A DNA stretch of 51,911 nucleotides. It comes from Candidatus Faecaligallichristensenella faecipullorum. Lineage in GTDB: Bacteria > Bacillota > Clostridia > Christensenellales > Aristaeellaceae. Both the position numbers and the translations under genes were made by a program. The notes beneath the pieces are model-generated. The model was given only the letters and a program-made list of their open reading frames with translations. It had not been told where the DNA came from and ran no database searches. Shown piece after piece: positions 1 through 51,911 of this stretch. The stretch covers positions 1-51,911 of the forward strand of contig DVJW01000210.1 in the NCBI GenBank assembly GCA_018716505.1. Direction: 5' to 3'. Each line of letters opens with the position of its first letter. The first letter of the stretch is position 1.

Positions 1-111
1 CGCCGCTGCGGATTGAATATGAAGGGGCTGCGGCCCCTTCATGCATCCCCAAACGGGAAAAATAGGTTTGTCAATGGTCTGAAGGGGGCGCGGCTCAGCC
101 GCGCCCCCTTC
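1..111 (+). repeat. Dispersed multi-hairpin repeat, copy 1 (truncated by window start)
   Basis: CGCCGCTGCGGATTGAATATGAAGGGGCTGCGGCCCCTTCATGCATCCCCAAACGGGAAAAATAGGTTTGTCAATGGTCTGA plus a terminal hairpin at 81-111; matches the reverse complement of 51720-51840. Confidence 0.85.
81..111. terminator. GC-rich 14-bp hairpin downstream of mntP (GAAGGGGGCGCGGC-TCA-GCCGCGCCCCCTTC)
   Basis: Perfect inverted repeat 18 nt beyond the mntP stop; no strong T-run on the mntP side. Confidence 0.5.
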
Positions 112-1611: not shown

Positions 1612-1627
1612 GAATATAACTTCATAG

Positions 1628-1704
1628 TTGCGGGGGGACTCTTCGGAGTTGAGAAGGTAAAACCTGACCCTTTGAACCTGTTGGTTAATACCAGCGCAGG
1701 GAGC
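1628..1704 (+). ncRNA. TPP (THI element) riboswitch
   Basis: GGGGGGACTCTTCGGAGTTGAGAAGGTAAAACCTGACCCTTTGAACCTGTTGGTTAATACCAGCGCAGGGAGC contains the diagnostic TGAGA, GAACCTG and CCAGCGCAGGGA elements. Confidence 0.95.
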
Positions 1705-1734
1705 ATTGTTATTCATTCTCAAAAAAGAATTTGT

Positions 1735-10321: not shown

Positions 10322-10359
10322 TATGGAAAAACTTAAGCCGGTATGATACAATCATGGGG

Positions 10360-10480
10360 CAAAGATAAAAACGCAACGCAGGCGCAAAACGCCTGTAGAG
10401 CCGGTAGGTAGCCCGGCCGCACCGAAAGGTGTAAGTAACCCTCCCTCCTTGGGTCGTCCGTTCTTTGCGGGGATAAAACG
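10360..10480 (+). ncRNA. yjdF-type structured leader (azaaromatic-sensing riboswitch class)
   Basis: GATAAAAACGCAACGCAGGCG...GAGCCGGTAGGTAGCCCGGCCGCACCGAAAGGTGTAAGTAACCCTCCCTCCTTGGGTCGTCCGTTCTTTGCGGGG immediately upstream of a YjdF/DUF2992 ORF. Confidence 0.82.
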
Positions 10481-41772: not shown

Positions 41773-41784
41773 ATATGATATAAT
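41773..41784 (+). repeat. 12-bp direct repeat ATATGATATAAT (left)
   Basis: Identical to 41988-41999; flanks the hairpin element. Confidence 0.7.
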
Positions 41785-41786
41785 CA

Positions 41787-41987
41787 GGGTGTTGACAAAG
41801 TCAACACCCTTCGAAAAAATGAAATATTCATTTTTTCGAGTTGCATCATTTTCCTGTCACCTTCGGTGACGGCCGGAAAATGATAGAGGAAGCGGCCACT
41901 TGGGCCGCTCCTCGAACCGGCAAAGCCGGTTCTGCGGATTGAATATGAAGGGGCTGCGGCCCCTTCATGCATCCCCAGACGAAAAAG
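41787..41987 (+). repeat. Dispersed multi-hairpin repeat, copy 2 (six hairpins)
   Basis: Hairpins at 41787-41809, 41812-41838, 41845-41884, 41891-41909, 41914-41932, 41945-41968; spacers match copies 1 and 3. Confidence 0.88.
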
Positions 41988-41999
41988 ATATGATATAAT
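41988..41999 (+). repeat. 12-bp direct repeat ATATGATATAAT (right), contains candidate -10 for the nuclease operon
   Basis: Identical to 41773-41784. Confidence 0.7.
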
Positions 42000-50177: not shown

Positions 50178-51710
<1,533 letters not shown>

Positions 51711-51717
51711 GCCAAAG

Positions 51718-51911
51718 AACGGGCGGGAAACCTTGTGTGGGTTTCCCGCCCGCTCAGACCGTTGACAAACCTATTTTTCTCGTTTGGGGATGCATGAAGG
51801 GGCCGCAGCCCCTTCATATTCAATCCGCAGCGGCGGCATGTACGCCGCGAGGAGCGGCCCAGGTGGCCGCTTCCTTTATCATTTTCTGGCCGCTGCCGAA
51901 GGCAGCAAGAA
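51718..51911 (-). repeat. Dispersed multi-hairpin repeat, copy 3 (truncated by window end)
   Basis: Reverse complement matches copies 1 and 2; hairpins at 51720-51752, 51794-51817, 51830-51848, 51853-51871, 51892-51906. Confidence 0.88.

What the first reader, a model, noticed from the sequence alone, without database searches (positions are those of the whole stretch)
41787..41987. Dispersed multi-hairpin element whose stems change sequence but stay paired while spacers are conserved
Copies 2 and 3, and the visible part of copy 1, share near-identical inter-hairpin spacers: ATTCAATCCGCA, GAGG, TCCTYTATCATTTTCYGGCC, GATGC. Stems at homologous positions differ wholesale yet remain complementary. 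In one orientation: GAACCGGC-TTT-GCCGGTTC (copy 2) vs GCGGCG-GCATGTA-CGCCGC (copy 3); GTCACC-GAA-GGTGAC vs GCTGCC-GAA-GGCAGC. Copies 1 and 3 also each carry a different but perfect terminal hairpin (GAAGGGGGCGCGGC stem vs GGGCGGGAAACC stem) before the same TCAGACCRTTGACAAACC spacer. This is opposite to ordinary decay of a repeat and points to selection for structure, or to exchangeable hairpin cassettes. I do not recognise it as a named repeat family; novelty is unverified.
Basis: seen in the sequence. Interest (0 to 1): 0.75.

Follow-up and report, generated by a model that had tools for sequence, protein, structure and literature searches.

The report
Mobile hairpin repeat that duplicates terminators
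The repeat is a small, gene-less jumping DNA element, present at about 120 places in this Clostridia genome, that inserts at the hairpins which stop transcription and copies the whole hairpin to both its sides; it appears to be moved by an IS1182-family transposase that reads the shape of its target rather than its sequence.

Summary
The repeat is real: its own genome holds about 120 loci. [quoted passage not shown] Most copies sit at intrinsic-terminator hairpins and are flanked by a direct duplication of the complete hairpin; the duplication length (16-37 bp) follows the hairpin, base to base. The 'different but perfect terminal hairpins' of copies 1 and 3 are therefore host terminators. The same termini flank IS1182-family transposase genes in related Christensenella-like Clostridia. 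Four intact ISs there, and eight of eight plasmid IS1182 relatives with similar termini, also duplicate a whole terminator hairpin; an empty site (379/379 identical, one hairpin) shows this directly in one case. Published IS1182-family targeting (IS1272/TnSha1) deletes the hairpin; duplication was only a hypothetical branch of a published model. The transposase was not found in the assembled (84% complete) genome, and the role of the interior hairpins is open. Copy 2 itself is atypical: a 12-bp non-hairpin duplication and a truncated right end.

The parts
41785..41987 (+). MITE copy 2 (right end truncated by about 20 nt relative to full copies)
   Evidence: full copies end ..ATAGGTTTGTCAATGGTCTG
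41773..41784 (.). left copy of a 12-bp direct repeat ATATGATATAAT (target duplication, not a hairpin)
   Evidence: read directly
41988..41999 (.). right copy of ATATGATATAAT
   Evidence: read directly
41785..41810 (+). left terminal inverted repeat, itself a hairpin CAGGGTGTTGAC-AAA-GTCAACACCCT
   Evidence: the IS left ends have the same design
41811..41839 (+). second hairpin TCGAAAAAATGAA..TTCATTTTTTCGA
41845..41884 (+). outer stem ATCATTTTCC/GGAAAATGAT enclosing hairpin GTCACC-TTC-GGTGAC (41856-41870), then conserved GGCC
41886..41913 (+). hairpin GAGGAAGCGGCC..GGCCGCTCCTC (covaries between genera)
41914..41932 (+). exchangeable hairpin cassette GAACCGGC-AAA-GCCGGTTC between conserved CTCCTC and TGCGGAT linkers
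41945..41968 (+). hairpin ATGAAGGGGC..GCCCCTTCAT
1..81 (+). MITE copy 1, right part only (contig start), ending in TIR ..TTTGTCAATGGTCTG
82..110 (+). host hairpin AAGGGGGCGCGGC-TCA-GCCGCGCCCCCTT directly abutting the right TIR, followed by a T-rich stretch
   Evidence: read; same layout as the two-ended copies
51755..51911 (-). MITE copy 3, starting with TIR CAGACCGTTGACAAACC, cut by contig end
51720..51752 (+). host hairpin CGGGCGGGAAACC..GGTTTCCCGCCCG, beginning 10 nt after the stop of the arabinofuranosidase-like gene (50205-51710) and ending 2 nt before the TIR

Best explanation
The repeat is a non-autonomous transposon (MITE) moved in trans by an IS1182-family transposase of the subgroup with CAGACYG-TGACAAA termini. 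SHOWN: the element has terminal inverted repeats shared with such ISs; most copies sit exactly at the base of a terminator hairpin; the complete hairpin is duplicated, so duplication length equals hairpin length; in a plasmid relative the empty site has one hairpin. [quoted passage not shown] gap repair then copies the hairpin on both sides. The downstream copy keeps the T-run, so a working terminator would remain and the MITE would become part of the 3' untranslated region. The interior hairpins are kept as hairpins by selection on structure and/or exchange of cassettes between copies; their role is not established.
For: Among 34 two-ended copies, 28 have a detectable direct repeat. All 23 repeats of 16-37 bp fold as hairpins (shuffle p <= 0.01) with 0-3 nt unpaired at either end; five are short (6-9 bp) (sequences). 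A stem of >= 8 bp begins within 0-2 nt of 71% (53/75) of right ends and 63% (45/71) of left ends, against 1.6% of random positions; 10-12 nt further out it is 0-3%. MITE ends in G026 give 54% and family IS/MITE termini 70%, controls about 1%. The terminal motif is multi-copy in many same-family genomes. PF13751 (IS1182-type) genes in G076, G104, G168, G096 and G031 lie beside such termini; NF033551 transpos_IS1182 at E about 1e-128 and 1e-131. Intact ISs L327, L331, L333, L334 carry exact 31, 22, 25 and 32-bp hairpin duplications. Eight of eight plasmid ISs with these termini do so too (L368-L374, L382; one, L368, with a 1-nt difference). Empty site: 379/379 identity with one hairpin in four Providencia plasmids, and 97.4% in Rhizobium anhuiense for another IS. 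A second MITE family with an unrelated interior shares termini and targeting (L262, L273).
Against: No IS1182-family gene or fragment was found in the own genome; it is 84% complete and broken at repeats, so this is weak. Copy 2 and at least five other copies have short, non-hairpin duplications. L329, L332 and L335 have different hairpins on the two sides, possibly assembly joins or recombination. No transposition was observed. The same-family genomes compared were from other genera, so there is no empty site for a MITE copy itself.
Confidence: 0.86

Rival explanations
1. It is a structured non-coding RNA gene or cis-element spread in many copies; the hairpins flanking it are part of the RNA.
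For: Strong fold and covariation with conserved linkers across genera.
Against: The flanking hairpins differ at every site and are direct repeats of each other. Termini are shared with transposase-bearing ISs. No Rfam family reaches its gathering score; best hits are far below it. Transcription and function are untested, so an RNA role of the interior is not excluded.
Confidence: 0.06
2. The hairpin flanks are coincidental: the MITE prefers intergenic 3' ends, which are rich in terminators, and recombination duplicated them.
For: Terminators are common between genes, and some copies lack hairpin duplication.
Against: The junction is within 0-2 nt of the stem base, and the excess disappears 10-12 nt away. 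Length follows the hairpin. Plasmid ISs in other phyla show the same, and the empty site has a single hairpin.
Confidence: 0.03
3. The variable stems inside the element evolved only by swapping ready-made hairpin cassettes (gene conversion, nested insertion), with no selection for pairing.
For: Two unrelated cassettes at one position are each shared between genera. MITEs insert into MITE hairpins (L155, L166, L171, L094).
Against: Small compensated steps also occur: the AACCGG, GGACCGG and CCGCCGG series, a single compensated G-C to A-U pair in L186, and a closing C-G to U-A change in 12 of 38 copies.
Confidence: 0.3

Closest known systems
IS1272 / TnSha1 (IS1182 family; PMC5678879, PMC4923244)
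   Same: IS1182-family transposase; targets hairpins, often transcription terminators, without sequence consensus; junction at the stem.
   Different: IS1272/TnSha1 delete or replace the stem-loop and make no duplication. Here the whole hairpin is duplicated, the outcome drawn only as hypothetical pathway b in Fig. 13 of PMC5678879.
Other IS1182-family members said to target palindromes (Siguier et al., as cited in PMC4923244 and PMC5678879)
   Same: Same transposase family and palindromic targets.
   Different: The review itself was not available here; those papers say it gave no detailed data. Whole-hairpin duplication may already be noted in ISfinder, which I could not check.
IS1549 / IS1634 (long variable direct repeats; PMC2266710) and IS1202 group (TSD >15 bp; PMC10132070)
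   Same: Unusually long duplications, variable in length in IS1549/IS1634.
   Different: Other transposase families; no hairpin rule is reported and no target was found for the long-TSD IS1202 group.
Prokaryotic MITEs (QMITE2, RUP, SPRITE; PMC10969869)
   Same: Short, gene-less, TIR-bounded, multi-copy, hairpin-forming; nested insertions.
   Different: GC-rich multi-hairpin interior conserved across genera; terminators as target; duplication defined by hairpin length.

Membership tests
MITE (non-autonomous IS derivative) | short, no transposase gene, terminal inverted repeats, target duplication, many copies | tested here: met
   about 225 bp, TIRs, 28 of 34 two-ended copies with direct repeats, 122 loci
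IS1182-derived MITE | termini shared with an IS1182-family element | tested here: met
   CAGACCRTTGACAAA termini beside PF13751/NF033551 transposases in five same-family genomes; the left end is a self-hairpin in both
IS1182-derived MITE | matching transposase in the same genome | tested here: inconclusive
   none found in G000, but it is 84% complete in 236 contigs, many broken at repeats
IS1182-derived MITE | mobilised by that transposase | not testable with these tools
   needs a transposition assay
IS1272-type stem-loop-replacing transposition | hairpin is the target | tested here: met
IS1272-type stem-loop-replacing transposition | target stem-loop deleted, no duplication | tested here: not met
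   whole hairpin duplicated; empty site has one copy
Rfam structured RNA | match above a gathering score | tested here: not met
Classical IS with fixed-length TSD | one duplication length | tested here: not met
   16-37 bp, following the hairpin
IS1202 / IS1634 long-TSD groups | their transposase | tested here: not met
   the associated transposase is IS1182; IS1634 model far below cut-off

The most novel reading that the evidence does not exclude
A widespread clade of IS1182-type transposases uses the extruded hairpin (cruciform) itself as target, cutting at the two feet of the stem, so that target duplication length is set by the hairpin and not by the enzyme; MITEs that use it have evolved interiors made of exchangeable hairpins, which serve as further landing sites and travel as cassettes between copies and genera.
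Probability: 0.35. Interest if true: 0.75.

Novelty: new variant of a known kind. Interest (0 to 1): 0.62.

Why it matters
Target duplications are normally a fixed few base pairs set by the geometry of the transposase. Here the length tracks the hairpin from 16 to 37 bp, which is simple to explain only if the enzyme sees a folded target. That makes a direct, cheap test of structure-directed transposition possible, and may explain some 'long variable' duplications that lack a model (PMC2266710). It is also a way for a selfish element to insert beside genes while leaving a complete terminator on each side, and it creates long structured 3' untranslated regions at many genes of a genome.

Tried and rejected
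Rfam scan: nothing above the gathering score. Autonomous copy in the own genome: none. G026's four PF13751 ISs have different termini (GGCGGTGTTGC..) and are each interrupted by another IS, so they are not the source. L304 looked like an IS but had only a decayed interior. IS1634 and IS1202 were considered for the long duplications; the transposase found is neither. More distant IS1182 relatives with TGTTGAAAAAG-type termini (L376-L378) showed no hairpin duplication, so the rule belongs to a subgroup. Gene-orientation statistics around insertions were unreliable (longest-ORF picks in GC-rich DNA) and were not used. MAFFT misaligned the first inner hairpin between genera, so only its outer two pairs were counted. 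The Agrobacterium plasmid locus (L380) was fetched but left out of the analysis.

Full report
WHAT IS THERE. The window (contig C115 of a 2.93-Mb, 236-contig, 84%-complete genome) carries three copies of a dispersed repeat: 1-81, 41785-41987 and 51755-51911. The outer two are cut by the contig ends, as are many other copies, as expected when an assembly breaks at repeats. Three module patterns give 66, 85 and 63 hits and none with reversed control patterns, clustered into 122 loci. The relatives that supplied named records are Candidatus Pullichristensenella and other Clostridia MAGs, so the host belongs to a Christensenella-like Clostridia family. It was not identified further.

ANATOMY. Aligned copies show a left terminal repeat that is itself a hairpin (CAGCGTGTCGAAAAAGTCGACACGCTG or CWGGGTGTTGACAAAGTCAACACCC), a second AT-rich hairpin, then four GC-rich hairpins joined by conserved linkers. 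The right terminal repeat is ..TTTGTCAAYGGTCTG or ..TTTTTTGACAGTCTG, the imperfect inverse of the left. Typical length is 225 bp; longer forms carry extra hairpin modules. The copy-2 strand folds at z about -13 as DNA and -12 as RNA.

TARGET. Printing both flanks of the 34 copies with both ends shows the key fact. On each side lies the same hairpin, different at each site, and often the right copy runs into a T-run. Of 28 copies with a detectable direct repeat, 23 have one of 16-37 bp. All 23 fold as hairpins, with 0-3 unpaired nucleotides at either end. L099 and L193 add two hairpin pairs that differ by an indel or an inverted loop. Five copies have 6-9 bp duplications. A stem of at least 8 bp begins within 2 nt of 53/75 right ends and 45/71 left ends, against 1.6% of random positions, and the excess disappears 10-12 nt away. 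In the window, the hairpin at 51720-51752 starts 10 nt after the stop codon of an arabinofuranosidase-like gene and abuts the terminal repeat of copy 3; the hairpin at 82-110 abuts copy 1. Copy 2 is an exception. It has a 12-bp duplication ATATGATATAAT (41773-41784, 41988-41999), lies between two outward-reading frames, and lacks about 20 nt of the right end.

RELATIVES AND MOBILISER. Related elements occur in other genera of the family. In the nearly complete genome G026 they again carry hairpin duplications. The terminal motif CAGACYRTYGACAAAG, with at most one mismatch, is multi-copy in many genomes of the family with controls near zero, and almost always abuts a hairpin. IS1182-family transposase genes (PF13751) lie next to such termini in G076, G104, G168, G096 and G031. 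Named loci confirmed this, with NCBIfam NF033551 at about 1e-128 and 1e-131. Four intact ISs have exact hairpin duplications of 31, 22, 25 and 32 bp; three others have different hairpins on the two sides. No transposase was found in the window's own genome.

BEYOND THE FAMILY. IS1182 relatives on complete plasmids with the same kind of termini, from Clostridium, Sphingobium, two Rhizobium plasmids, Salinivibrio, Providencia, Bacillus and a further Rhizobium, all have the terminator hairpin on both sides: eight of eight (L368 with a 1-nt difference). For the Providencia IS the joined flanks with a single hairpin match four other plasmids over 379/379 bases. This is a true empty site and shows that the second hairpin arose with the insertion. 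A Rhizobium anhuiense plasmid gives a second empty site at 97.4%. IS1182 members with other termini (L376-L378) do not show it.

HOW IT MOST LIKELY WORKS. Shown: the target is a hairpin and the duplication is the hairpin. Inferred: joining at the 5' feet of the stem on both strands of an extruded cruciform, then gap filling. This is pathway b of the model drawn for IS1272 in PMC5678879, where the observed outcome was the opposite (stem-loop removed), as it was for TnSha1 in PMC4923244. Because the two feet are neighbours on a four-way junction whatever the stem length, one enzyme geometry can give 16- to 37-bp duplications. In many copies the downstream hairpin keeps the T-run, so a terminator should remain and the MITE would be carried in the 3' untranslated region; transcription was not tested.

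THE INTERIOR. On 38 interiors from two genera the structure pairs in 96.5% of cells, with 11 covarying pairs and 104 both-side changes (shuffles 32 +/- 5; slid partners at most 11). Shuffles do not model relatedness, and a change inherited by many copies is counted many times. At the third hairpin, two unrelated cassettes recur between the same linkers in different genera, while smaller compensated variants also exist. Some MITEs are inserted in hairpins of other MITEs (L155, L166, L171, L094).

COMPARISON AND VERDICT. Works like: structure-directed IS1182-family transposition. Member of: MITE (features met) with IS1182-type termini (met; transposase absent from the assembled genome; mobilisation untested). 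Not a member of the IS1272-type stem-loop-replacing mode (deletion tested, not met). The papers I could search did not describe whole-hairpin duplication as an observed outcome. The main IS review was not held and ISfinder could not be consulted, so priority is unverified. New variant of a known kind.

Noticed in passing
window 1622-1719 (+): TPP riboswitch above Rfam gathering score.
   Followed up: no
window 10355-10477 (+): azaaromatic (yjdF) riboswitch above Rfam gathering score.
   Followed up: no
L262 (G000 C80), L273 (G000 C47): A second MITE family with an unrelated interior but the same kind of termini, also flanked by a duplicated terminator hairpin.
   Followed up: partly
L192, L193: The two flanking hairpins have loops inverted relative to each other (e.g. 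TTAT versus ATAA), as if one hairpin flipped after or during insertion.
   Followed up: no
L321 (G076 C90): A MITE and an IS1182 element at the same terminator, with hairpin copies between and beside them.
   Followed up: partly
L279, L282, L284, L286 (G026): Four near-identical IS1182-type copies, each apparently interrupted by another IS, with different termini from the MITE.
   Followed up: partly
long MITE forms such as L092, L160, L176: Extra hairpin modules of 80-240 nt inserted in the ATCATTTTCC/GGAAAATGAT stem or between hairpins, recurring in many copies.
   Followed up: no
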